IMG/VR virus record: IMGVR_UViG_3300035211_000159
Coordinates: 1 to 46,379 of that record
DNA from: a virus
Reading direction: 5' to 3' (one strand)
Length of the DNA stretch: 46,379 nucleotides
The position numbers were made by a program, and so were the translations under genes. The notes under the pieces were generated by a model. The model was given only the letters and a program-made list of their open reading frames with translations. It was not told the origin of the DNA and did no database searches. Below are positions 32,723-45,568 of this stretch, one piece after another. Within the stretch, counting starts at the first letter, position 1, and each line of letters opens with the position of its first letter.

Positions 32723-33724
32723 CTAGGAGTTCTCCACCTTGACCGCACCATACGGCAAGGCAATGCCGGCACCGGACCGGCTGTCCCACTGGATGTATTC
32801 CTCCTTAGTGGTCCGCACGCTGTCGCTGTTGTTGTCGTCCATGAGGGAAGTGAGTTCCCGCACCGGCGCACGCTCCATGAAGAACGTGGGCTTGATCGGG
32901 CTTCCCTTCAAGAAGACATACCAGTCGTTCGCGTCGGTGAGGTAGGCGCTGGCCCACAGGGTGACGTCCCGAGATGCATCATAGATGATATTACTCGGGG
33001 TGGTGCCGGCATTCGACCCGACGTCGTATGCCTGACGTCGCTGGAGGAAGGCCTTCTCCATGATCTCGGTGAGTTCCGGGGGATGGATGATGATCGTGCC
33101 GCTGTCGATGATGTCATCGTTGAACAGAGGCTGACCCTTGCCATCCTGGAATTCCCGAAACCGACGAACAGCGGCGTAGTAGTCGGTCTGGATCAGGGCC
33201 GTGGTGGTCACCCCACCGCCGCTGATCAGGTTTCCGCCCGACACACCGAACCGGTCGTTGCTGTCCCCATCCGTGGCGTAGAACATGGCCGCGCCGTCGG
33301 GGGCATTGGGCACGTCGGGAAGAATCCCCACGTCCCCGTTGCTGATCATGTCGAAGAAGAACCGCAGGGGAAGCAACGCGAAGGATTGTCCGGTCAACCG
33401 GGCAATGGGGAACAGGCTCTGGGTCTGCTCGTCCATCCGGTCGTCCTCGTTCCACTTGATTCGACGACCCCAGTTGTAGGCATAGGTCGTGAACTTGGTG
33501 GAATCCATCGCGTCTTCCGGGATGCCCTGTCCCCGTTTCCACTGTTCGGGATGGGGCGGGGCCTCGATGTAGCCGAAATCGTGTTCGCGGTTCGTGGCGG
33601 TGATGGAAAGGTCCATCACGTCGCCCAGTCGCTGGCTGGGGAGCCGGTTCTTAACCTTTTCATAGGTGTCCCAGAACTCGGTTCGCAGGCCGTTGACCAG
33701 GAGTTGGCTGGTAATGACTTCCAT
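32723..33724 (-). CDS. Mu gpT-like major capsid protein
   Basis: 333 residues, the normal length of this family. It opens MEVITSQLLVNGLRTEFWDTYE and continues with FGYIEAPPHPEQWKRGQG, TTYAYNWGRRIKWNEDDRMDEQ and FFFDMISNG, a pattern typical of Mu-like major head subunit gpT (PF10124, HK97 fold). It forms the icosahedral shell. AAAGGAG precedes the ATG, the decoration-like gene lies upstream, and a strong terminator follows, consistent with high expression. Confidence 0.87.
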   Translation of the reverse strand: MEVITSQLLVNGLRTEFWDTYEKVKNRLPSQRLGDVMDLSITATNREHDFGYIEAPPHPEQWKRGQGIPEDAMDSTKFTTYAYNWGRRIKWNEDDRMDEQTQSLFPIARLTGQSFALLPLRFFFDMISNGDVGILPDVPNAPDGAAMFYATDGDSNDRFGVSGGNLISGGGVTTTALIQTDYYAAVRRFREFQDGKGQPLFNDDIIDSGTIIIHPPELTEIMEKAFLQRRQAYDVGSNAGTTPSNIIYDASRDVTLWASAYLTDANDWYVFLKGSPIKPTFFMERAPVRELTSLMDDNNSDSVRTTKEEYIQWDSRSGAGIALPYGAVKVENS

Positions 33725-34220: not shown

Positions 34221-35558
34221 CTAGTCCTCCTCTTCCAGGGCGATGCCGTGTTCCCGCCGCATGTGCAGGTCCACATAGCGTTTCTTGTCCACCCGGACAT
34301 GGCCCCGGGCCTTGAGTTGGTCCCACTGGGCGGCGAACCCGGCGGCAAAACCGACGGCCTCCGTCCCGTGGGTCTGATACTTCATGGCGATGCTCGGCAC
34401 GCCGGCGGTGTGACTGGCGAAGTTTGCCAGAGCCGTGTCCCCGTTCCGGGGGACCTGGGCGAAGGTCTTCGTCATGGAGGCCACGTAGTCCTGGAACGCT
34501 TCGGCGCCGTGCTTGGTGTGGAACGCCACCAGTTTCTCCTCGACGTCCGCACCCAGGGGCCGGCCCTCGAGCAGCTTGAGCGCCTCGGCCACGTCCGCTT
34601 TGCGCTTGGCCTCGGCGTCCATCTCGTCCAGACGTCCTTTCAGGGCTTCGTTCTCGCCCTTCAGGTGCGCCACGGTCTTGAGCAGTTCCTTGTCCGAATT
34701 GTCTTTCATGGATTCCACTCCGGGCATGGCCGCCGGGGCCGCTTCGTCCTCGGGAGTCTCCTCGGAAGTCGCCGTGGATTTCTGCTCCTCGATGGCCGCC
34801 ATGATGGCATCCATGTCCGCCACGGAGATGGAGCCGTCCTTGATGGCTTTGACGACAGCGGAAACATCGAGACCACCGTCGGCCTCCATGTTCTCCGTTT
34901 CGTCTTCCTTGGGCTTCTCCTTGCCCTTCTTTTCCTCTTTCGGCATGTCTGCCTCCTGGAAAATCAAGTGGGCCGAGTCGCCAAAAGAAAAACACGCCAC
35001 CGCCGGCCCGTCCGGGGCGGGTTGTTTACACCTGTATGGATTTTTCACCGCCGCGTATGCCGTGATCGGCTCGGCGGGTTGCTTCCGGTCGTCCAGGTTG
35101 GATACCACCAACATGGGAAGTTCCAGGTATGGGGCCTCATGGTCCAGAAGCGCCAAGGACACGATCTTGGGCGTGCCGTCTTTGGGAACCTCCACGGACC
35201 GATAGGGCAATCGCTGGCACAGGATGTCCTCCTGCACCCATTCCGACGTGATGACCAGGTCGGCAAAAAGAGCGTGTTTGGGGGATCCCTTGAAGGTGAT
35301 GACCCCGGCATGAGTGATTTTTAAGAACCCGGCCGGCTTGATCGCGTCGTTGAGTTCATGGACGGGTTCGTGGTGCCGGATGTGCAGGGGTGGGTGATAC
35401 CCTTCCTCGGCGGCTTGAAGACTGTATCGACAGGCTTTTTCGATCCAGTCCCCGTCGAAAACCAGGTCCCCCCGGGTATTTTCAGCAAAAATGGGGACGT
35501 GATGGATCGTCATCACGCCCTGCGCGTCCCGTGTCGCCTGGTATCCCATTCTGGCCAT
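34221..35558 (-). CDS. Mu gpI-like prohead protease fused to scaffold
   Basis: 445 residues. The N-terminal half (HHVPIFAENTRG, HIRHHEPVHELNDAIKPAGF, RSVEVPKDGTPKIVSLALLD) fits the Mu-like prohead protease domain with its His/Ser elements. Residues 230-330 are acidic coiled coil (EEKKGKEKPKEDE, LLKTVAHLKGENEALKGRLDEM), the internal scaffold. The C-terminus is helical. The enzyme trims the scaffold during head maturation. GGGAGG precedes the ATG. The 5' end overlaps a small helix-turn-helix gene by 77 bases. Confidence 0.8.
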   Translation of the reverse strand: MARMGYQATRDAQGVMTIHHVPIFAENTRGDLVFDGDWIEKACRYSLQAAEEGYHPPLHIRHHEPVHELNDAIKPAGFLKITHAGVITFKGSPKHALFADLVITSEWVQEDILCQRLPYRSVEVPKDGTPKIVSLALLDHEAPYLELPMLVVSNLDDRKQPAEPITAYAAVKNPYRCKQPAPDGPAVACFSFGDSAHLIFQEADMPKEEKKGKEKPKEDETENMEADGGLDVSAVVKAIKDGSISVADMDAIMAAIEEQKSTATSEETPEDEAAPAAMPGVESMKDNSDKELLKTVAHLKGENEALKGRLDEMDAEAKRKADVAEALKLLEGRPLGADVEEKLVAFHTKHGAEAFQDYVASMTKTFAQVPRNGDTALANFASHTAGVPSIAMKYQTHGTEAVGFAAGFAAQWDQLKARGHVRVDKKRYVDLHMRREHGIALEEED

Positions 35559-35742
35559 TTATCGCCTCCCGAATGGCTTTTTCAACGGCCGGAATGGGCC
35601 GCCGAACCTCACCATTGATCAGCCGATAGATGGTCATACCAGATACTGGAATCACATGTGTTAAATTCCGGACGCCTTTTTCCGCCACCAGGCGCTTTAA
35701 TTTTTCCAGCGTCTCGGGCCAGGTGTCCGCGGTCATTCTCAT
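35482..35742 (-). CDS. Small helix-turn-helix protein inside the head operon
   Basis: Eighty-six residues. The ATG at 35742 overlaps the MuF stop (ATGA). Helices LEKLKRLVAEKGVRNLTHVI and the turn/recognition part SGMTIYRLINGEVRRPI match small XRE/Cro-like domains. The last 20 residues are Gly/Asp-rich. The 3' end overlaps the protease gene in another frame by 77 bases. A DNA-binding protein in the middle of a head operon is unusual; it could be a late-gene regulator, or a DNA-binding accessory. Confidence 0.68.
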   Translation of the reverse strand: MRMTADTWPETLEKLKRLVAEKGVRNLTHVIPVSGMTIYRLINGEVRRPIPAVEKAIREAINGQNGIPGDTGRAGRDDDPSRPHFC

Positions 35743-36683
35743 GCCTCGTTGACCATTAAATCGGGCCGTCCCCCGTGCCGAAACCCGGGGTCCGGGTGGG
35801 CTCCCGCGGGAACCCGGTCGCTCTGGACCCGTCCAGCTCGGTCAATCCGGCCCATCCGGCGCAACATGGGAACCGAAACCAGGGACAGGGAGCACCGGCA
35901 GTTGTGGCCCATGGGCGGGGCGATCTGACCCCAGGCAGGGTTGTCCACCGCCATGATCAGGCCGTTCGCCGCCCGGTGGTTGTCCCGGGTGTCCCGGTCC
36001 CCCACGGCGTCGTAGCGGAATGCCGGGACCACTTCCCGGATATCGGGATCCTGAACCTGACGGAACCGGCCCGCCGTGATGGCCGTGTTGATATTGGTCC
36101 GGAACGCCATTCGGGCGTAGCCTTCCGACCAAGGGGCGGACTGTTTGGCCACTTCATCCACGGCCATGGCCAAGCCTTTCCCCACCTGAGGTTCCGCCAG
36201 GCCCTGCTTGAGTGCTCGGCCCATGAATGCCTGGGCCTCGTTGGTGACCGTGGATTCCGCCGCCCGGGCAAAGGCGATGACCCGATCCTCGGAATACAGC
36301 CTGGAAATCCTGTAGGCGGTCCGTTCCGCCGCATTTTTCAGGGTGACCGGGGCCCGGGACACCAGGTCATCCACCGCCTCGGTCAGGGTGACCCGCGGCA
36401 GGACATTCTGGTCCCCGGCGAAGGTCAGCAGGTAGTCCTTGTCCACCCGCAAGTTGGCGGTCTGAGGGGTCAGCAGGGCCCCGGCGGTCTTGAGCACCTG
36501 CATGGCGCCCAGGGCCTCACCGGCACCCATAGTGGCATTGATGGCCCGGTAGAGGCGCAACCGGGCGTCTCGGGCGGCCACGTCGTTTCCCCGGACCGTG
36601 GCCACGTAGAGATCATGGACTGCCACGGTGTAAGGCTTGGCATACCGGCCGGACAGGTCTTCGAGGAATTTGGTCACGTCCAT
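35739..36683 (-). CDS. MuF-like head morphogenesis protein
   Basis: 314 residues. The conserved MuF block (PF04233) is visible in the last 120 residues: AFRTNINTAITAGRFRQVQD, FRYDAVGDRDTRDNHRAANG, then WGQIAPPMGHNCRCSLSLV, the usual H-x-C-R-C end. The first 190 residues are helical. MuF proteins are minor head components packaged near the portal and sometimes carry toxin domains; none is attached here. It follows the sugar-modifying island rather than the portal directly. Confidence 0.82.
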   Translation of the reverse strand: MDVTKFLEDLSGRYAKPYTVAVHDLYVATVRGNDVAARDARLRLYRAINATMGAGEALGAMQVLKTAGALLTPQTANLRVDKDYLLTFAGDQNVLPRVTLTEAVDDLVSRAPVTLKNAAERTAYRISRLYSEDRVIAFARAAESTVTNEAQAFMGRALKQGLAEPQVGKGLAMAVDEVAKQSAPWSEGYARMAFRTNINTAITAGRFRQVQDPDIREVVPAFRYDAVGDRDTRDNHRAANGLIMAVDNPAWGQIAPPMGHNCRCSLSLVSVPMLRRMGRIDRAGRVQSDRVPAGAHPDPGFRHGGRPDLMVNEA

Positions 36684-37387
36684 AGGTCCTCCACCGCGTC
36701 ATCCCCAATCCATTCCCGCAACTTGTTCCCGTCCGGGTCCGACTTCCACGGGGACCGCGAAGTCTCAGGTCGATGACCAACCCCAAGACCCGGACGTCCC
36801 AGTGGACCCTTCAGTCCAATTACCGTCACGGGGTCAATATACAGGTGAATGTTCATGTTCTTTCGTTTGAGCAGGTCCCAAAACCGGGCATCCACGCCCC
36901 GGCATTCCCGCTCCAGCGCCCAGGTCAGCGCCTCGTGAAAAATCGGCAGCATGGACCGCCGAAACCCTGTCTGCGCCAGGGACGATCCCCGGTTGTTGAG
37001 TTCCACCCATAGCTGAGTCGGCAGGTGGTAGTAATGCTGGCGTTCATCGCCCGCCGCGTCGTATTCGTCCAGTAGGGCCGCCATCGTTTGCAGGTGGTTC
37101 GGGTGGTAGAAATCGTCGTCCTCAATGATCACGACTTTTTCATGCTGAATCAGCGGCGTGGCGGCTTGCAGATTGTGGACAAAGGATTGAACCGATGGCG
37201 CTTCGCCGGGCGTGCGTCGAACATAGTCCAGGGCCCAGCCCGGACCCGGGATCTTTGGCTTGTAAAGCTCTTCCCCGTCATCCACTACGATCCACTGCGC
37301 ACCCAGGTAGGTCTGCGAAGACAACCACTTGACGCAGTGTTTCAGCGCCTCGGGTCGGTCACCGGTGGGTGTGATGCAGGTGATCAT
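36674..37387 (-). CDS. GT-A-type glycosyltransferase (family 2-like)
   Basis: 237 residues from the ATG at 37387, which overlaps the previous stop (ATGA). The opening ITCITPTGDRPEALKHCVKW with WIVVDDGEE is the nucleotide-sugar binding start of GT2-type enzymes. VVIIEDDDFYHPNHLQ carries the metal-binding DxD. HLYIDPVTVIGLKG closes the fold. It probably moves a sugar from a nucleotide-sugar donor. It is the last of six coupled sugar-modifying genes between portal and MuF. Confidence 0.75.
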   Translation of the reverse strand: MITCITPTGDRPEALKHCVKWLSSQTYLGAQWIVVDDGEELYKPKIPGPGWALDYVRRTPGEAPSVQSFVHNLQAATPLIQHEKVVIIEDDDFYHPNHLQTMAALLDEYDAAGDERQHYYHLPTQLWVELNNRGSSLAQTGFRRSMLPIFHEALTWALERECRGVDARFWDLLKRKNMNIHLYIDPVTVIGLKGPLGRPGLGVGHRPETSRSPWKSDPDGNKLREWIGDDAVEDLWT

Positions 37388-38013
37388 ACCGAAATGGCGT
37401 CCTTCATTTCTTTTCCGATGGGAAGGAGTTCGCCCTTCCGACACACGTCATGATACCACTGCTTGCGCACCAACCCAATCCGTCCACCGGTTCCCCGTTC
37501 CTTCAACCGCTTGGTTCCTTCGATCTCGTTTTCCCAGGGCGTTTCGTTAGACACCAGTTGCTCCAACAGGTAGTCCTTACGCCACCATGCCGGTTTGTGG
37601 CATACCATGTAAGGACTATCGTCTTCGATGATGAACGGTCCAGGTTCGCTGGTTCTTGTGTAAATGAATGACTTGGTTCCGTTGACGTGGACGCAATCGA
37701 ACCATTCATCCCACCCCCTTTCTTCGGGAATCAGGTTGTCCAGGTAGAAGTTTTGCTTCGCCCAGATGTCTTCTTGAACGTAGAATATCCAGTCTTCTTC
37801 AATCCGAACCAATGCCTCGGCCAGGCGGTCCGACCATTCCTTGGGACCCGTGAACACCACCCGCCAATCCGCATAGTGAACATTCACCCGGGCCGGATAG
37901 TCCGACACGAAATACTTCGGACCCAGGAAGCGCACGTATTCCTGCCAGTAATAAATGAACGGATCCCAGCAGAACCGATAAGAATCCATGGTATGCATGA
38001 GAACGGCGGCCAT
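37384..38013 (-). CDS. Glycosyltransferase-like protein
   Basis: 209 residues from the ATG at 38013, which overlaps the previous stop (TAATG). It opens AAVLMHTMDSYRFCWDPFIY and includes YPARVNVHYADWRVVFTG, DWIFYVQEDIWAKQNF and a SPYMVCHKPAWWRKDYL segment. The YVQEDIW stretch takes the place of a DxD-like acidic motif of GT-A folds. I recognise the layout from phage proteins found beside glycosyltransferases but know no biochemical data. It is coupled on both sides within the island. Confidence 0.58.
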   Translation of the reverse strand: MAAVLMHTMDSYRFCWDPFIYYWQEYVRFLGPKYFVSDYPARVNVHYADWRVVFTGPKEWSDRLAEALVRIEEDWIFYVQEDIWAKQNFYLDNLIPEERGWDEWFDCVHVNGTKSFIYTRTSEPGPFIIEDDSPYMVCHKPAWWRKDYLLEQLVSNETPWENEIEGTKRLKERGTGGRIGLVRKQWYHDVCRKGELLPIGKEMKDAISV

Positions 38014-38708
38014 TATTCCCCCCACAGGTTCTTGTGTTTCGTCTCGTCGGAAAGGCTCTTGTGATAGCCACGATTGTTCACGCCGACGTAAGGTTCCCAG
38101 ATCGAACCAAAATCCATCAACGCGGCTCGGGTCTCATCCGAAAACATGTGGATGGCAAAGTTGGCCAGATAGGACGCCGAAAAAGCCACTGCGTCCACGT
38201 CCTGGGTCACCAGGGAATGGATCTCATCCAAGACGCGATCCCGTTCCAGGTTTACCGCGCCGAATGGGATCTCAACATGCCCGCCAGTGTTCAAAAAAGG
38301 TATAGTGGTCAAATGCCTCGGGCCTACCAAGCCCACCCGATGCTCTCGTAACCACGCCACCAACGGGTAAAGTTGCCCCTTCATGTTGGCTTTGTGGAAC
38401 ACGTCGGCATTGAGCCAATTGACCACCGGAGCCAAAGCCTCGGGAACGTAACCTTCCCGAATACACAGCGGCTGGATGGCGTAGTAGAATGGTTTTTTAC
38501 GCACGGGACAGAACGTGGACCACAGGTCCCGGGCCACTTCGGGCGTGGCAAAGACCTTGCCACGCTTTGGACGGGATCTCGACATCTTGACGCCGGCCAT
38601 GGCGAACAGTTCAAAGTCACCATATCGCACGAACCGCCAGGAATTGTCCAAGCCCCCGACGATTTTGCCCAGGTCGAAATCCCGTACGTTTATACCGGCT
38701 GCTTCCAT
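38013..38708 (-). CDS. GT-D-like glycosyltransferase
   Basis: 231 residues from the ATG at 38708, which has AGGAAAG upstream; the open frame to 38831 extends into the previous gene. FVRYGDFELFAM resembles the R-x-GD-x-E core of GT-D fold enzymes (DUF1792-like). Later YYAIQPLCIRE and RVGLVGPRHLTTI match the family's middle section, and AVAFSASYLANF its end. It likely uses a nucleotide sugar. The acceptor is unknown. It overlaps the preceding gene by 19 bases. Confidence 0.62.
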   Translation of the reverse strand: MEAAGINVRDFDLGKIVGGLDNSWRFVRYGDFELFAMAGVKMSRSRPKRGKVFATPEVARDLWSTFCPVRKKPFYYAIQPLCIREGYVPEALAPVVNWLNADVFHKANMKGQLYPLVAWLREHRVGLVGPRHLTTIPFLNTGGHVEIPFGAVNLERDRVLDEIHSLVTQDVDAVAFSASYLANFAIHMFSDETRAALMDFGSIWEPYVGVNNRGYHKSLSDETKHKNLWGE

Positions 38709-39358
38709 TCTTTCCTCCACGTCACGTATGGATTGCAATGTCCCGTCCCATACGTCCCCTCCAGGTGATGGATCGTCAGTCCCGCCTCGATGGCACAGTT
38801 GTCCATGCTCATCTGGTCCCTCAAGGTCCACCGCTGGACCTCACGCGCCCACAACGCGTTGAACTTCCGAACCTTGCCCGTGTCCTTGCGCAACAGAAAC
38901 CCGCTGGCGGTCAAGGTTTTCAACCGGTCCACCCAGCCGATCTTCTTATACAGGTTGAACTGCTCCCGTAGCAGTCGCTCAGGTGCCTTGCCAAGTCGTA
39001 ATATTTCCTCTACTTCATCCGCCAGGTTGTCCCGGGCAGGATGCTTCATGGCGGCGATCTCTACACCGGCGGCGTCCAGTTCGTGGATTAAATCTGTCGG
39101 GTCAATATCCAACCGAAACCGATCGTCCATCCAGACCGACCAAGTGTGCGGTGGTAGCCATGACTGCGGAAGAATCTTCCGCATCCGAGCACGATACCGG
39201 GGGCGTTTGGCCTGTAGTTCCCGCTTGCATTTCCACACCTTGGACGAACACTCACGATTCGTGAACCGGAGGTATTCAATCTCTGGATTCACCACCACCG
39301 GATCCTGGGGTTCCATGGCTTCCGGTCCAAAGGACGCCGTGTAGACGATGATTTTCAT
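38690..39358 (-). CDS. DUF616-type glycosyltransferase
   Basis: 222 residues from the ATG at 39358, overlapping the previous stop (ATGA). It opens KIIVYTASFGPEAMEPQDP and carries SVWMDDRFRLDIDPTDLI, MKHPARDNLADEVEEI and the late MSMDNCAIEAGLTIHHL. The HPxRxN...E block and the DDxF site are the signatures of the DUF616/TOD1-like transferases. It would add a sugar to a protein or polysaccharide. It is part of the portal-MuF sugar island. Confidence 0.7.
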   Translation of the reverse strand: MKIIVYTASFGPEAMEPQDPVVVNPEIEYLRFTNRECSSKVWKCKRELQAKRPRYRARMRKILPQSWLPPHTWSVWMDDRFRLDIDPTDLIHELDAAGVEIAAMKHPARDNLADEVEEILRLGKAPERLLREQFNLYKKIGWVDRLKTLTASGFLLRKDTGKVRKFNALWAREVQRWTLRDQMSMDNCAIEAGLTIHHLEGTYGTGHCNPYVTWRKEWKQPV

Positions 39359-39906
39359 GCATTCCGCTCCCACACAGTGAACCCGTGACTGGCCGTGTCG
39401 TGAAACACGATCTTCCATGCAGGTCGGGTGGACATGAACTCATCAATGGCGGAAAGGATGCCTTTGGTCCCAGGCTTCTGGCGTCCGGTTTCCCCATCGG
39501 CGCCCACAGTGCCAAAGGTCACGGTGTCGTGAAAGATAATATATTTCCTGGCGCAATCGCCGTGCCTGGACAATTCCCCCTTGACCTGGTCATAGTTGTG
39601 CAGACTATCCACGAAGAGAAGATCCGTTTCTTTGGGTTCCGCTTCCAGGCTGGATTGCAGGTGGAAGTCCCACCGGTCCCAAGCTAGTTCTTTGATCTTG
39701 CGGTGCCATCGGTGATGACGAATATCGTAGCTGGTGAGATGACATCCGGCGGAAAGAATCGCCACGGTGGAACACCCAGCATTGACGCCGAATTCCACTG
39801 CGTTGGAACATTTCTCCGCATACTGTTTGAGCGTGGGCATGTGGTAGGACATTGCTTTTCCGCCTTGATAGAGTTGCTCAAACAACGCGTCCAGGGTCTT
39901 GACCAC
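39355..39906 (-). CDS. Class I SAM-dependent methyltransferase-like protein (CmcI-like)
   Basis: 183 residues, GTG start at 39906 with AAGGAG upstream. NAVEFGVNAGCSTVAILSAG is the SAM-binding motif I. TDLLFVDSLHNYDQVKGEL matches motif IV, with HD/HN residues of the CmcI/Methyltransf_24 group, and IIFHDTVTFGT follows. Such enzymes O-methylate sugars or small acceptors, so in the sugar island it may methylate a glycan. It starts eleven bases after the preceding gene's stop and overlaps the DUF616 gene by four bases. Confidence 0.7.
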   Translation of the reverse strand: MVKTLDALFEQLYQGGKAMSYHMPTLKQYAEKCSNAVEFGVNAGCSTVAILSAGCHLTSYDIRHHRWHRKIKELAWDRWDFHLQSSLEAEPKETDLLFVDSLHNYDQVKGELSRHGDCARKYIIFHDTVTFGTVGADGETGRQKPGTKGILSAIDEFMSTRPAWKIVFHDTASHGFTVWERNA

Positions 39907-39917
39907 CGATTACTCCT

Positions 39918-40508
39918 TCATTTTCCGCCTTTGTTCCGAATGTCTTCAAAGTCGCCTTGCAGAACGGCGGTCAACCGCGATTCCTTCGACAGGTTGACCA
40001 CCTTTGACGGCAACAGGTCCAGCAACCTTTCCCACTGATGGTTCTCCCGAGTCACCATGTGCCAGCGGGATCCGTCGTTCAGGTCCACGCCGATCAGGCC
40101 GATCGTCTCAAACCCCAACCAAGACGCCACGGCCGTGGCCCAGAACGGAGACATGGCCGCCCACAAGGGTGGATCGACTCCCACACGACGCGGTGCGAAC
40201 CAGGATAGGACGTCCTTGGACGGGAATTCTACAATACGAGGAAAAGGCTGCCGCCCACGGCGGTCCTGGCAGAGATGGGAAAAAACCACCATGGGGGCAG
40301 CAGATCGCATGATCGGCCAGACCTTGTCCCGGAACGGTTCCACGCAGATGCCGATATCGACAGACACATAGGTCACGGCACGGTTGCAAACCAGGGTCCA
40401 GCGGGTTTTGAGTTGGTCATAAATGTCCGGCGCCTTGGACGAAGGGCCGGGTGCTACAACGACGGCATCCTCTCCGCTGAAGAAGTCCCGCCAGTCATTG
40501 AACTTCAC
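39918..40508 (-). CDS. DUF115-like glycan-modifying protein
   Basis: 196 residues from the GTG at 40508 (KFNDWRDFFSGED), which sits inside the end of the preceding short gene; in-frame ATGs exist further upstream but would overlap that gene deeply. AVVVAPGPSSKAPDIYDQL and WTLVCNRAVTYVSVDIGICVEP resemble DUF115/Maf-like proteins that transfer sialic-acid-type or other sugars. FETIGLIGVDLNDGSRWH is the second conserved block. It is the first gene of the sugar island behind the portal. Confidence 0.6.
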   Translation of the reverse strand: MKFNDWRDFFSGEDAVVVAPGPSSKAPDIYDQLKTRWTLVCNRAVTYVSVDIGICVEPFRDKVWPIMRSAAPMVVFSHLCQDRRGRQPFPRIVEFPSKDVLSWFAPRRVGVDPPLWAAMSPFWATAVASWLGFETIGLIGVDLNDGSRWHMVTRENHQWERLLDLLPSKVVNLSKESRLTAVLQGDFEDIRNKGGK

Positions 40509-40653
40509 GCTTGCCCTCGTTTTCCTTCCCCTTCCCGACATCTTCCACAGATTTCCCCGCCGGGTCAAGTGGATTTCCGTCCTTGTCTTTCACATCGAAA
40601 TCAAACGGATCACCCGTCATGCGTTCCCGAAAGGCTTTCTTGTCTTCATCCAT
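40495..40653 (-). CDS. Short charged protein downstream of the portal
   Basis: Fifty-two residues: MDEDKKAFRERMTGDPFDFD followed by a Lys/Asp/Gly-rich disordered tail (KDGNPLDPAGKSVEDVG). The ATG at 40653 has TTAGGAGGGCACC upstream, almost the same site as the gene at 42931-43464, so it is well supported despite its size. It ends 14 bases inside the next gene. Function unknown; small charged proteins next to portals can be assembly factors. Confidence 0.65.
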   Translation of the reverse strand: MDEDKKAFRERMTGDPFDFDVKDKDGNPLDPAGKSVEDVGKGKENEGKREVQ

Positions 40654-40662
40654 GGTGCCCTC

Positions 40663-42900
40663 CTAAGCGGCTTCCTTTACATCCACAATAATGGTCCCGT
40701 CCGGTGCGTGTGACACCTTGGTGATGTTCAACGAAACCCCTTTCATCGAAAGGTATTCCCGCTCCACCCCCGAATAGGCCGACACGGCATCAATGGAACG
40801 TGCAGAGTTCAAGCTACCACGAACCATAACCGGGACAAACCCAGACGTGGCCTTGGAAAACCCCTTGGCCACATCCACGTCGTCTGTCCACGATGAATGA
40901 CACGACCCTTCCAAGTTGTTACCTTCCTTCAAAAGATCGCGATAGGAGTCTTCCGGCAATTTCATGCCACGGTAGAACGTGCCGGAAAGTCGGGGTGCCT
41001 TCTCCAATGCCATGGATAGTTGTTGCAGCGTCTTCGTTTGTTCTTCCGTGGGTTCCTGTGTTCCTTGCTGAACAGCCTTGAGATTTTGATATTCAAAAGA
41101 CCGCGTCCACGAATCCATGGCTTGGCGCTCCTCTGTGCTCAAACCCTTGGCCCAGGCGTTCAGATCTTCCGGTGTAGCGCCTGACACCGGTTGGATTCCG
41201 TCCGGTGGCCCGTCATCAGCAGGGAATCCCTCTGTTCGATTCTCGACTTTGGCTGCTTCCTTGTCATTGATATATTGCAGGTATAGGCGTTGTTCCTCAC
41301 TCGTGCTATCTGGGTTCAAGAATGGATTGTATTGTGGGTCGTTGAACTCCTTCGGATATTTGCTTTCCCCACTTCCCGACTTCGATGGGGCCACCTTGGG
41401 TTCGTCCTTTGCCTTGGGCTTGTCTTTCGTTTCCGATTCATCGGAACTCTTTTCCCTGGTCCCGGGCTTCGGCCCGTAGACAATCTTGTCCCCCTTCTTC
41501 CACCCCTTACCACCACGCGGACCCACGTAAGGTTCCCAGTCCCCTCCATCGTCCGCCATGTTGAGGAGCGGTGTGGTGTCCTTGAACATGGAATCAAACC
41601 CGTCCGAAGGAAGCGCCGGTTGCTGCGGTTGCGGCGTGATGAGTTCCTCCCCTTCCTGTGGCTTACGGAACCCGGTCTGATCCAGCACGTCTTCCAGGCT
41701 AAGGCTCACGCCCATCTGGGTGAGATTGGCAGCCACTTGGGATCGTTCCAGGGGATCCTGCCGCTTCTCCTGAACAATTTGGAATCGCGGCATCTCGTTG
41801 GCGATGCCCAGTTCCACCATGTTCGGCCAGTTCTTGAACCACAGGCAGCCCAGCAGATCATCCGTCAGGGTCTCCTCAAGCAGCTCCCGGTCACACTGGA
41901 CAATTGATTCCGTGCTGTTCTCCTGGATCTCGGCCAGGGCGTAACTGCCGCCCTTGTCCGCCGACGTGGTCAGGTTGGCGCCAAGGACCAGGGTGAAGAT
42001 GGTGGTGCGGAGTTCCTTCCGCATCTCCCCGGACATCTGCCACCCTTCACCGCTGGGAGTGATTGTTTCCACCTGGTCCTCGGAATCGCTCACCAGGACA
42101 TGACGGGCCCGCAGGTCTTCCAGAACGCTTTTCCATTCGTTGATCAGCGTGGTGTTGGGTTTCCCTGTGGCGGCGTCCCGCACGCCCTTGATCTTGGCAT
42201 GAATAATACCCTGGCCAAACCGTTCAATAGCTGAAATCGATTCCTGGAAAATGTGTGTCTTGGCATACCACCACCAGCCCAGGGCCTCACGCAAGGCACG
42301 GCCGTAGCCCAGCGTGGACTGTTCGTCCTGATAGACGTGCCGGATCGTCTGCTTGGCCTGGTCAAGGGTGACCTTTTCCCAATCGCCCATGCCGATGTTC
42401 CAGCATTCCCACCAGCCTTTGAAATTCCCTTTCCGGTCGTTCTCGGGCACGACCCGATATTGCCGCTTGTCCCGGTCTTCCAGCCGGCTCGGCACCCACC
42501 AGGTCCGGGGTCGTCCGTCCCCGATGGTCAGGGTCTTGGGTTCACCGTGGATATAGGCGAATCGGGAACCAGAAAAGAACGCCCGGGCCAGGTTGAACCG
42601 GGCGGACGTGAAGTGACGCAACGATTCCAGCAGTTCCGTGCCGATGGACACGGCCATGTCGGCGTGAGAGCTGCCTTCTTGGCGAGGTTCCAGGTTCCAC
42701 CGTTTTCCCGCGATAGCGTGGCGCCGAAAGTCGATGGCATGGCTGATGTCGGCGTCCCGCAACATCTTCTCTTCGATCTCGGGCTCACGGGATTGCCAAA
42801 CGGACGGGTCATAAAGTTGGACGCCGGACAGGTAGGCCGACGTCATGGCCCGGATCCACAGCTGCTGGGCCTGGTTTCGGATTCTCAATTCGGTGGTCAT
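40663..42900 (-). CDS. Mu gp29-like portal protein fused to an ADP-ribosyltransferase domain
   Basis: 745 residues. Residues 1-430 are a DUF935/gp29-like portal (AISHAIDFRRHAIAGKRWNL, TIRHVYQDEQSTLGYGRALRE, FTLVLGANLTTSADKGGSYA), forming the DNA-packaging ring. After a linker with WEPYVGPRGGKGWKKGDK and a disordered Lys/Glu stretch (480-530), residues about 560-745 are an arginine-type ADP-ribosyltransferase: YRG with Arg644, SSWTDD (Ser669-Thr672) and EREYLSMKG giving Glu713-x-Glu715. The R-S-E triad is complete, so NAD-dependent modification of a host target after injection or in assembly is possible. Confidence 0.8.
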   Translation of the reverse strand: MTTELRIRNQAQQLWIRAMTSAYLSGVQLYDPSVWQSREPEIEEKMLRDADISHAIDFRRHAIAGKRWNLEPRQEGSSHADMAVSIGTELLESLRHFTSARFNLARAFFSGSRFAYIHGEPKTLTIGDGRPRTWWVPSRLEDRDKRQYRVVPENDRKGNFKGWWECWNIGMGDWEKVTLDQAKQTIRHVYQDEQSTLGYGRALREALGWWWYAKTHIFQESISAIERFGQGIIHAKIKGVRDAATGKPNTTLINEWKSVLEDLRARHVLVSDSEDQVETITPSGEGWQMSGEMRKELRTTIFTLVLGANLTTSADKGGSYALAEIQENSTESIVQCDRELLEETLTDDLLGCLWFKNWPNMVELGIANEMPRFQIVQEKRQDPLERSQVAANLTQMGVSLSLEDVLDQTGFRKPQEGEELITPQPQQPALPSDGFDSMFKDTTPLLNMADDGGDWEPYVGPRGGKGWKKGDKIVYGPKPGTREKSSDESETKDKPKAKDEPKVAPSKSGSGESKYPKEFNDPQYNPFLNPDSTSEEQRLYLQYINDKEAAKVENRTEGFPADDGPPDGIQPVSGATPEDLNAWAKGLSTEERQAMDSWTRSFEYQNLKAVQQGTQEPTEEQTKTLQQLSMALEKAPRLSGTFYRGMKLPEDSYRDLLKEGNNLEGSCHSSWTDDVDVAKGFSKATSGFVPVMVRGSLNSARSIDAVSAYSGVEREYLSMKGVSLNITKVSHAPDGTIIVDVKEAA

Positions 42901-43473: not shown

Positions 43474-45096
43474 CTATGGGGTCCAGTGGCCGGCACGATC
43501 CCGGCCAAGATCCGCCACGTCTTCCCGGTCCTCCGGGCTGGCGTCCGGGTCATCATACCGGGCTTTTTTCTTTTCGTCACGGTCTGGCGCCTGCTGCAAC
43601 CCGAACGGGTGCGCCTCAAGAAAAGCCCAGGCCCCGGACGTAGCGTCCACCAGGTCCTTGAGTTCCACGTCGGGGAAGCCTTCTACCTCATCCAGGTAGC
43701 CCTGGGTCCAGGGTCCGACGTAGAGGCGCAGGCCGTCCCGCTGGGCATAGAAATCCCGTCCCTGGTCCGCTCCCCACCAGGGTTCACCGGACTCGGGACA
43801 TTCGGCCCGACGCTGGTGGCCGCGTTCCAGGCACGACGCCACCGGGGCAGCCCGGGCTTCTTTCCCGGAATCGCTGACCGGGGTTCGGATCAACAGTTTC
43901 GCTTCCTTTTCAGTAGGGATTTCTGCCCGAGGCCTGGCGCCGGCGACGCGGAACCCTTCCCGTTCTAATCTGTCCTTCAAAGTCTCAAATTGTGCAGGAC
44001 CACCGGACCCCCCTTCGATTTCCAAGCCGACGGTGACGTGGTGTCCATCGATGTGGGCCTGCCGGACAATGGCGGCATCCCGTTTGCCGGGGGTGGCCCG
44101 GAACGCGTTGGCATGGACAATGGCCCGGACGCCCAGGCGCAGTCTTGCCATGAGCACGCCGGCGGTCCGGGCGGCGTCCGCCTTTTCGCTGGCGGCCAAG
44201 TCCCACCATCTGACGGCGATGTAGTCGTTCTTGGGTAACGGCGTTTCCTTGGGATGCAACAGGGGGCCGAACCATTCCTGCCGGAAGTAGTCGCCGGGCT
44301 CCCGGGCATCCCAGTCGCCCTTGAGAAGCTGGGCCCGGACGGTAGGGTGCAGGTGTTTGAGGGATTCGATATATTCGTCCTGGTCCAGGTGCGGATTGTC
44401 CTGGATCCGTGCCGGCAGGAACGGACGGGATGCCTCGATTCGGCTACCCGTTCTCATGTCCACGGCCCCGATGAACCGCTCCTTGACCCACTGGTGCCCG
44501 GGCCCACCGGGGTTCGATGCCGCCAACAGGCGTAGGGGTGTGCTGGATCCCTTGAGCCGGCGGACACGAGACAGGCCGATGTATTCGTATTGCTTGGGGG
44601 TTTCCCACTGGGTAAGCTCGTCGAAACATACCAACTGGTATTCCGCCGACTGGTAGCGCAGGTGGTCCTGGGGGTTCTTGAGGTAGGCCAGGCTGACCTT
44701 GGACCCGTTGGGGAAGGTGAATATCTTGTTGGTCCCGTCCCAGCGGATCCCGGTCTTGGACGTTGGCAACCACCACTCCATAGCCCGATCCATGAGGGCG
44801 CCGGGTTCCGCCAGGTCGGTAAAGGTTTTCCGAAACAGAATAGATGCCGAGCCCGGGTATCCCCACGCCGTCTGCGCTGCCGCCATCAGTAAAGCAGACG
44901 ACTTCCCGGGCCCGGCGGCCCCGCCGAACAGGGCCTCGAAGACGCCAGCTGCGACGGGGCGGGTGCGGTGAAGCCCCAGGAAACTGGCCTGCTGGGGAGT
45001 GGGCCACTGGGGGATCCACGGATTGCCCACGATGAAGGGGCAGATGTTCTCGAGGGTCTTTAAGGCAATCCGATCTTCGACTTCAGGTTTTTCCAC
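43474..45096 (-). CDS. terL: Large terminase subunit
   Basis: 540 residues from a GTG at 45096; an earlier TTG at 45147 would overlap the small subunit by 65 bases. The ATPase domain has Walker A GGAAGPGKS (about 58-66), the Walker B stretch YQLVCFDELTQ and AASNPGGPGHQW. The nuclease part starts at YIAVRWWDLAASEKADAA (first Asp) and includes LEIEGG and GRDFYAQ segments. It pumps DNA into the head and cuts it. Tetrad small-large-portal order supports it. The C-terminal SGAWAFLEAHPFG is typical. Confidence 0.9.
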   Translation of the reverse strand: MEKPEVEDRIALKTLENICPFIVGNPWIPQWPTPQQASFLGLHRTRPVAAGVFEALFGGAAGPGKSSALLMAAAQTAWGYPGSASILFRKTFTDLAEPGALMDRAMEWWLPTSKTGIRWDGTNKIFTFPNGSKVSLAYLKNPQDHLRYQSAEYQLVCFDELTQWETPKQYEYIGLSRVRRLKGSSTPLRLLAASNPGGPGHQWVKERFIGAVDMRTGSRIEASRPFLPARIQDNPHLDQDEYIESLKHLHPTVRAQLLKGDWDAREPGDYFRQEWFGPLLHPKETPLPKNDYIAVRWWDLAASEKADAARTAGVLMARLRLGVRAIVHANAFRATPGKRDAAIVRQAHIDGHHVTVGLEIEGGSGGPAQFETLKDRLEREGFRVAGARPRAEIPTEKEAKLLIRTPVSDSGKEARAAPVASCLERGHQRRAECPESGEPWWGADQGRDFYAQRDGLRLYVGPWTQGYLDEVEGFPDVELKDLVDATSGAWAFLEAHPFGLQQAPDRDEKKKARYDDPDASPEDREDVADLGRDRAGHWTP

Positions 45097-45568
45097 CGTT
45101 GTGTCCTGGTTTGCCCTTGGGTTTACCAGGATTCGTTGGAAAGTCAACCTCGTTTTCCACTTGAGCCAGGCGTGCCGATGTGGCGGCGAGTTCGTTCAGG
45201 TATTTCACCATTTCCTGGCGGGACGGGACGGGTGGGCCGGTTCGTGGAGATTCCATGTTGATCGACCGAGCATCGATAGCCACGCTGGTGTCCGGCACGG
45301 CACCGCACAAGCGGTTGAAGAGCAACTTGGCGGCGGCGGGATCTCCGGTATTTTTGACCCGTTCAAACAGGGCCTCAATGGCTTCCCACAGGCGTTCTTC
45401 CAGCGGTGTTCCGGACTCTTCAGCTTTTTTTCGTGCGATAGTGAGTAGGTTGAGGGAGCCCTTGGGACGACCGCCGAGCTTTCCCAATTTTGCCCCAGGC
45501 AGTAGTCGTCCTTTTTCGTCTCGTTCCGGCGATTTGTTTTCGCCTTTATTCTGGGATTCTTTAGTCAC
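45083..45568 (-). CDS. terS: Small terminase subunit, DUF5681-like
   Basis: 161 residues, GTG start at 45568 directly after the upstream stop. The first 45 residues (RDEKGRLLPGAKLGKLGGRPKG) show the basic GRPKG element of DUF5681 proteins that precede large terminases. The rest is helical (LEERLWEAIEALFERVKN, MVKYLNELAATSARLAQVE) with a Pro/Gly-rich tail. It would recognise the packaging site. The stop overlaps the large terminase start region. Confidence 0.75.
   Translation of the reverse strand: MTKESQNKGENKSPERDEKGRLLPGAKLGKLGGRPKGSLNLLTIARKKAEESGTPLEERLWEAIEALFERVKNTGDPAAAKLLFNRLCGAVPDTSVAIDARSINMESPRTGPPVPSRQEMVKYLNELAATSARLAQVENEVDFPTNPGKPKGKPGHNGGKT

What the first reader, a model, noticed from the sequence alone, without database searches (positions are those of the whole stretch)
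40663..42900. Portal protein carries a complete arginine-type ADP-ribosyltransferase domain
The C-terminal 180 residues after a disordered linker have all three catalytic elements in order: YRG with Arg644, SSWT (669-672) and EREYL with Glu713 and Glu715. Injected or virion-bound ADP-ribosyltransferases are known (T4 Alt), and MuF-linked toxins are known, but a transferase attached to the portal ring itself would put a dozen copies at the DNA exit point. It could modify host RNA polymerase or defence proteins at entry, or modify virion parts in assembly.
Basis: partly seen in the sequence, partly recalled or inferred. Interest (0 to 1): 0.8.

Follow-up and report, generated by a model that had tools for sequence, protein, structure and literature searches.

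The report
Phage portal carrying an ADP-ribosyltransferase
An uncultured phage has fused a real, catalytically complete-looking protein-modifying enzyme (an ADP-ribosyltransferase) to the ring through which its DNA leaves the capsid; closely related phages carry other enzymes, or none, at the same spot, so the portal tail looks like a slot for interchangeable weapons.

Summary
Confirmed. The 745-aa ORF at 40663-42900 (-) is one uninterrupted protein: a Mu-type portal (PF06074, E 4.6e-37, residues 44-410), a 26-residue GPRGGKGW motif (455-480), a charged linker, and a C-terminal ADP-ribosyltransferase (ART). AlphaFold2 on a 22-sequence alignment of residues 556-745 gives pLDDT 81; the model matches Tre1 (VIA-align Z 19.1) and Vis (Foldseek E 7.6e-10). 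R644, S670 and E715 are invariant in 22/22 relatives; E713 is Glu in 18/22. Sequence alone links it to a phage minor-head ART family (PHROG 16619, E 6e-9).

A second portal family (PF06381) also carries an ART. The tail thus resembles a polymorphic effector slot. Host target, cleavage from the portal and delivery are inferred, not shown.

The parts
40663..42900 (-). portal-ART fusion gene, 745 aa
   Evidence: single open frame
41581..42900 (-). portal body, residues 1-440 (Mu gp29-type)
   Evidence: PF06074 E 4.6e-37; PHROG 113 E 1.9e-29; 50-66% identity to portals of related viral contigs
41461..41538 (-). junction motif WEPYVGPRGGKGWKKGDKIVYGPKPG, residues 455-480
   Evidence: sequence; same motif ahead of ARTs in polyvalent proteins L085 and L069
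41176..41460 (-). charged, probably disordered linker, residues 481-575
   Evidence: sequence; low GC3 relative to portal body
40666..41175 (-). ADP-ribosyltransferase domain, residues 576-745
40969..40971 (-). Arg644 codon (NAD-binding Arg of YRG)
   Evidence: 22/22 conserved
40891..40893 (-). Ser670 codon (SSWT; STS-equivalent)
   Evidence: 22/22 conserved
40756..40764 (-). Glu713-Arg-Glu715 codons (ExE)
   Evidence: E715 22/22, E713 18/22
43474..45147 (-). large terminase, upstream neighbour
   Evidence: PF03237 E 2.8e-12, PHROG 979 E 1.5e-75
35739..36683 (-). MuF minor head protein, 314 aa, no effector tail
   Evidence: PF04233 E 3.2e-16; aligned over its length to short MuFs of relatives
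32723..33724 (-). major head protein
   Evidence: PF25209 E 3.5e-9, gpT PF10124

Best explanation
A Mu-type phage portal has gained, behind its native C-terminus, a motif-linker-ART cassette of the arginine-specific (R-S-ExE) kind. Most likely the domain is built into the procapsid with the portal, on the inner (DNA) side of the ring, released from the ring by cleavage in the linker/motif region, ejected with the DNA, and then ADP-ribosylates host proteins early in infection, working like T4 Alt or MuF-ART effectors. Shown: fusion, ART fold, conserved catalytic residues, replacement by other long tails (one a clear Zeta kinase) in close relatives. Inferred: enzymatic activity, inner location (from portal structures in general), cleavage, ejection, target. 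The ExE signature predicts an arginine target.
For: Portal body and ART in one frame. Fold and catalytic residues. Nearest sequence family is a phage 'minor head protein' family, i.e. ARTs already carried by virion proteins. Related portals carry a Zeta kinase (L010, PF06414 E 3.5e-26), a RelA/SpoT-like domain (L011/L012, PF04607 E 0.0062 for the tail, 0.0016 for its C-terminal part; below cut-off) and an HExxH-bearing tail (L129). A PF06381 portal carries an ART in one 1166-aa frame (E 1.6e-102 and 4.1e-17, both over cut-off). GC3 falls from 0.755 in the portal to 0.60 in the ART, as expected of a later addition.
Against: No virion proteomics. No recognised head maturation protease in the gene set: the candidate protease/scaffold gene 34221-35558 had no relevant family match. 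An uncleaved ART would stay on the ring and could not be injected. The close relatives mostly lack any such tail, so it is dispensable for assembly and its benefit is unknown. Neither activity nor target was tested.
Confidence: 0.55

Rival explanations
1. The ART acts in the producing cell or during assembly (self- or virion-protein modification, or late host take-over) and is not an injected effector.
For: The gene sits in the late head module, so the enzyme is made in quantity before lysis; no cleavage site or protease is demonstrated.
Against: Related portals carry unrelated long tails (Zeta kinase; others weakly assigned) at the same place, which fits a delivered-effector slot better than an assembly role; 59 close relatives have no such tail.
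Confidence: 0.22
2. The ART is a counter-defence enzyme: on entry it modifies or blocks a host defence protein or nucleotide-signalling system, rather than RNA polymerase.
For: A PF06381 portal (L221) carries a region that reads as a 2H phosphoesterase (my reading of the sequence, not a profile hit) between the portal and an ART; PMC5512222 and PMC9503650 report 2H domains fused to portals and propose a role against nucleotide-signalling immunity.
Against: No direct link between this ART and any defence; the target cannot be read from sequence.
Confidence: 0.2
3. Polymorphic toxin used by a lysogen or phage against competitors, with cognate immunity.
For: Closest structure is Tre1, an interbacterial ART toxin; MuF polymorphic toxins exist (PMC5576092).
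Against: No ADP-ribosylglycohydrolase, macrodomain or tyrosine integrase found in the record; the genes between portal and MuF are mostly glycosyl- and methyltransferase-like. The record may be a fragment, and other immunity types are possible.
Confidence: 0.1
4. Catalytically dead or decaying domain kept as a binding module.
For: Only one copy of this exact fusion was found; relatives of the domain are at about 18-24% identity.
Against: R, S and both Glu intact, open frame, confident fold.
Confidence: 0.07

Closest known systems
ART domains of polyvalent / head-packaged phage proteins (PMC5512222, 2017; PMC9503650, 2022)
   Same: ART fused to a head-module protein; [quoted passage not shown] the two papers report portal fusions of Nudix, 2H, PBECR and InPase domains
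   Different: Here a specific Mu-type portal with an R-S-ExE ART, and swapping of the tail within one portal clade, which I did not find described in the passages I read
MuF polymorphic toxins (PMC5576092), e.g. EFV toxin
   Same: effector at the C-terminus of a head protein in the packaging module; ART among the toxins
   Different: carrier is the portal; the MuF here is short and toxin-free; no immunity gene recognised
PaV-LD ORF079R / PHROG 16619 minor head protein
   Same: closest sequence relatives of the ART; invariant R, HxSW, E
   Different: tandem ART copies on a non-portal protein (PaV-LD and viral contigs L113-L125)
Tre1 (6dre) and Vis (4xzj)
   Same: fold and R-S-ExE active site
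   Different: not phage portal proteins; about 20% identity
T4 Alt
   Same: head-packaged ART delivered with DNA; proposed mode of action
   Different: separate protein; only a weak profile match (PHROG 802, E 0.19)

Membership tests
Mu-type phage portal (PF06074) | match to the portal profile above its cut-off | tested here: met
   128.6 bits vs 23.9; E 4.6e-37
Mu-type phage portal (PF06074) | gene lies in terminase-portal-MuF-capsid order | tested here: met
   TerL 43474-45147, portal, MuF 35739-36683, major head protein 32723-33724, with cargo genes between portal and MuF
R-S-E ART superfamily | ART fold | tested here: met
   model pLDDT 81; Z 19.1 to 6dre_B, 157 residues, rmsd 2.5
R-S-E ART superfamily | Arg, Ser-x-Ser-like and Glu catalytic residues | tested here: met
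   R644, S670, E715 in 22/22; aligned to Vis
R-S-E ART superfamily | Pfam PF03496 above cut-off for this sequence itself (a convenience criterion, not a defining feature of the superfamily) | tested here: inconclusive
   PF03496 16.7 bits vs cut-off 23.4, E 0.0048: below the cut-off; membership rests on PHROG 16619, the profile and the fold
Arginine-specific mono-ART (ExE) | ExE motif | tested here: met
   E713-R-E715; specificity itself not tested
Arginine-specific mono-ART (ExE) | NAD+-dependent transfer to arginine | not testable with these tools
   needs purified protein
MuF polymorphic toxin | effector attached to a MuF domain | tested here: not met
   the carrier is the portal; MuF is a separate 314-aa protein
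Polyvalent protein | several effector domains in one virion- or conjugation-delivered polypeptide | tested here: inconclusive
   one effector domain plus a structural domain; shares the junction motif with polyvalent proteins L085 and L069
T4 Alt-like head-packaged ART | packaged in the head and delivered with the DNA | not testable with these tools
   needs virion proteomics

The most novel reading that the evidence does not exclude
The portal C-terminus is a polymorphic effector slot: in one phage clade the same portal carries an ART, a Zeta kinase, a RelA/SpoT-like domain, an HExxH-bearing domain or nothing, each joined through a short conserved GGQF/GGKGW/GRF-type motif that marks module borders (and perhaps cleavage or packaging sites) across portal, MuF and polyvalent proteins of many phages.
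Probability: 0.45. Interest if true: 0.68.

Novelty: new member of a known kind. Interest (0 to 1): 0.52.

Why it matters
It gives a concrete, testable case of an enzyme carried by the DNA-exit ring, which would place about twelve copies per virion if not cleaved, and suggests that portals, like MuF proteins, are interchangeable carriers for proteins delivered at the first moment of infection. The recurrent border motif offers a handle for finding such effectors by sequence and for testing how they are released from structural proteins.

Tried and rejected
tblastn of the whole protein (E limit 0.01) and of its C-terminus (E limit 0.1) against 50,697 phage records: no match. Direct viral-contig scan with the ART alone: none. 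Genome-contig scans with the portal and with the ART alignment: none, so no host could be inferred. Single-sequence AlphaFold2 of residues 541-745 failed (pLDDT 47); only the alignment-based model was used. Weak tblastn hits in Microbacterium phages (L109, L110) are MuF-linked domains without a clear ExE and were not used; L112 and the plasmid hits were not pursued. Internal translation start for a free ART: the ATG at residue 448 has no Shine-Dalgarno sequence; an AGAGGAG lies before the ATG in ERQAM, but that would cut off the start of the ART's helical region, so it is regarded as chance. Immunity by ADP-ribosylglycohydrolase or macrodomain: not found. The junction motif was not found in the paper library, and only marginal hits to it exist in cultured phages.

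Full report
What was checked. The ORF at 40663-42900 on the minus strand encodes 745 residues without interruption. The window is an IMG/VR virus record of 46,379 bases. The first half of the protein matches the Mu portal family PF06074 with E 4.6e-37 and PHROG 113. Its neighbours are a large terminase upstream, and downstream a MuF protein and a major head protein, so this is the packaging module of a tailed phage.

The C-terminal domain. The domain alone hits PHROG 16619, a minor head protein family, with E 5.8e-9, and gives weak hits to PF03496 (E 0.006; below cut-off), to a PHROG named ADP-ribosyltransferase (E 0.031), to the Alt PHROG (E 0.19), and to solved ARTs (Lmo0066, Vip2, Vis, Tre1). 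A PHROG 16619 member, Planktothrix phage PaV-LD ORF079R, contains two such domains and scores above Pfam's cut-off for ART PF01129. Aligning the window domain with these gave invariant YRG, HxSW and ExE. A profile scan found 13 more viral loci with one or more copies of the domain. In 22 aligned sequences R644, S670 and E715 are invariant and E713 is Glu in 18.

Structure. Without an alignment AlphaFold2 failed (pLDDT 47). With 22 sequences taken from the window and viral contigs it gave pLDDT 81.3 and pTM 0.75. Foldseek ranks Vis, Tre1, Lmo0066 and C3 exoenzymes first (E down to 7.6e-10); VIA-align gives Z 19.1 to Tre1 over 157 residues. A profile search of PDB sequences aligns the catalytic motifs with those of Vis (E 7.7e-9). 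Among viral predicted structures the best matches include minor capsid proteins and an entry named HK97 portal protein, 1201 aa. The ART fold is therefore well supported. The model depends on the family alignment, and the alignment rests on the independent E 6e-9 match.

The portal clade. Two profile scans of viral contigs returned 67 contigs with portals about 50-66% identical to the window's, plus one distant one. Among 63 counted with a complete C-terminus, 59 end within about 115 residues of the portal body and have no effector-like tail; four have long tails. L010 carries a Zeta toxin kinase (PF06414, E 3.5e-26), which also matches PHROG 16619 at E 1.3e-44, the same mosaic family that holds the window-type ART. 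L011 and L012 (near-identical) carry a RelA/SpoT-like domain (E 0.0062 for the tail, 0.0016 for its C-terminal part; below cut-off, so tentative). L129 carries a long tail with an HEFGH motif but no Pfam match. In nearly all of these phages the MuF is short; the one long MuF tail in the clade, in L056, looks like an intein.

The junction motif. In the window the portal body is followed by WEPYVGPRGGKGWKKGDKIVYGPKPG. The same motif precedes ARTs in two polyvalent proteins (L085 and L069). The other extended portals have HPAGSGKGGQFAPK-type (L010, L011, L012) or HPRDDHGRFVSG (L129) sequences at the junction. L085 contains both the GGKGW and GGQF types, repeated between its modules, so I treat them as one class of border marker; that they are related to each other is an inference. 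All four extended relatives have such a motif and none of 59 unextended ones does; the pattern was drawn up after seeing the sequences, so the Fisher value there is only descriptive. Among those hits, L221 is a PF06381 portal (E 1.6e-102) with an ART (PF03496 E 4.1e-17) in one 1166-aa frame; L156 has the last positions of an HK97 portal profile (E 0.0049, contig cut) followed by the motif and an ART (PF03496 E 2.9e-5, below cut-off); L142 and L159 place ARTs on what read as MuF proteins. Portal-ART fusion therefore occurs in at least two portal families.

Origin. GC at third positions is 0.755 in the portal body and 0.75-0.81 in terminase, MuF and capsid genes, but 0.60 in the ART and 0.615 in the linker. 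With the absence of the ART from close relatives, this favours a relatively late acquisition behind a native portal C-terminus.

Mechanism. General knowledge of portal structures puts the C-terminal part of many portals on the capsid side of the ring; that is not tested for this protein. If so, the ART would lie inside the head. An ART tethered to the ring cannot enter the host, so delivery would need cleavage, for which the linker and motif are candidate sites. I recognised no protease by profile; gene 34221-35558 is a candidate protease/scaffold by position and by my reading of its sequence only. My best estimate is a virion-delivered, arginine-modifying effector acting at the start of infection, with a counter-defence role as a real alternative. 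No ADP-ribosylglycohydrolase, macrodomain or tyrosine integrase was found.

What is known. PMC5512222 reports portal fusions of PBECR, 2H and InPase domains; [quoted passage not shown] MuF polymorphic toxins, including an ART, are in PMC5576092. The fusion is therefore a new member of a known kind. I did not find the tail swapping within one portal clade or the border motif described in the passages I read; the library holds only open-licence papers.

Noticed in passing
window 36674-40568 (-): Between portal and MuF, where relatives L001 and L002 have MuF close behind the portal, lies a block of cargo genes: TOD1/MUCI70 glycosyltransferase-like (PF04765 E 5.5e-16), glycosyltransferase family 2 (PF00535), methyltransferase (PF13578), an MptE-like weak hit and two genes without a significant match.
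   Followed up: partly
L135-L253 and L085, L069: A short GGQF/GGKGW/GKF-type motif recurs, up to six or seven times per protein or gene cluster (L085, L202), at module borders of phage polyvalent, portal and MuF proteins; not found in the paper library.
   Followed up: partly
L056:7238-8251: The MuF protein of one portal relative carries an intein-like insertion (PF14890 E 4.8e-7, below cut-off).
   Followed up: no
L113-L125: Minor head proteins related to cyanophage PaV-LD carry one to three diverged copies of this ART in tandem, with adjacent ORFs carrying more; suggests expansion and diversification of head-borne ARTs.
   Followed up: partly
L221:2139-5636: PF06381 portal followed by a GGQF motif, a region that reads as a 2H phosphoesterase, a second motif and an ART: a multi-effector portal.
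   Followed up: partly
L197 and L220: Mu-like portals in very long frames (2084 aa for the record of L197) with several GGQF-type motifs and further domains behind the portal.
   Followed up: no
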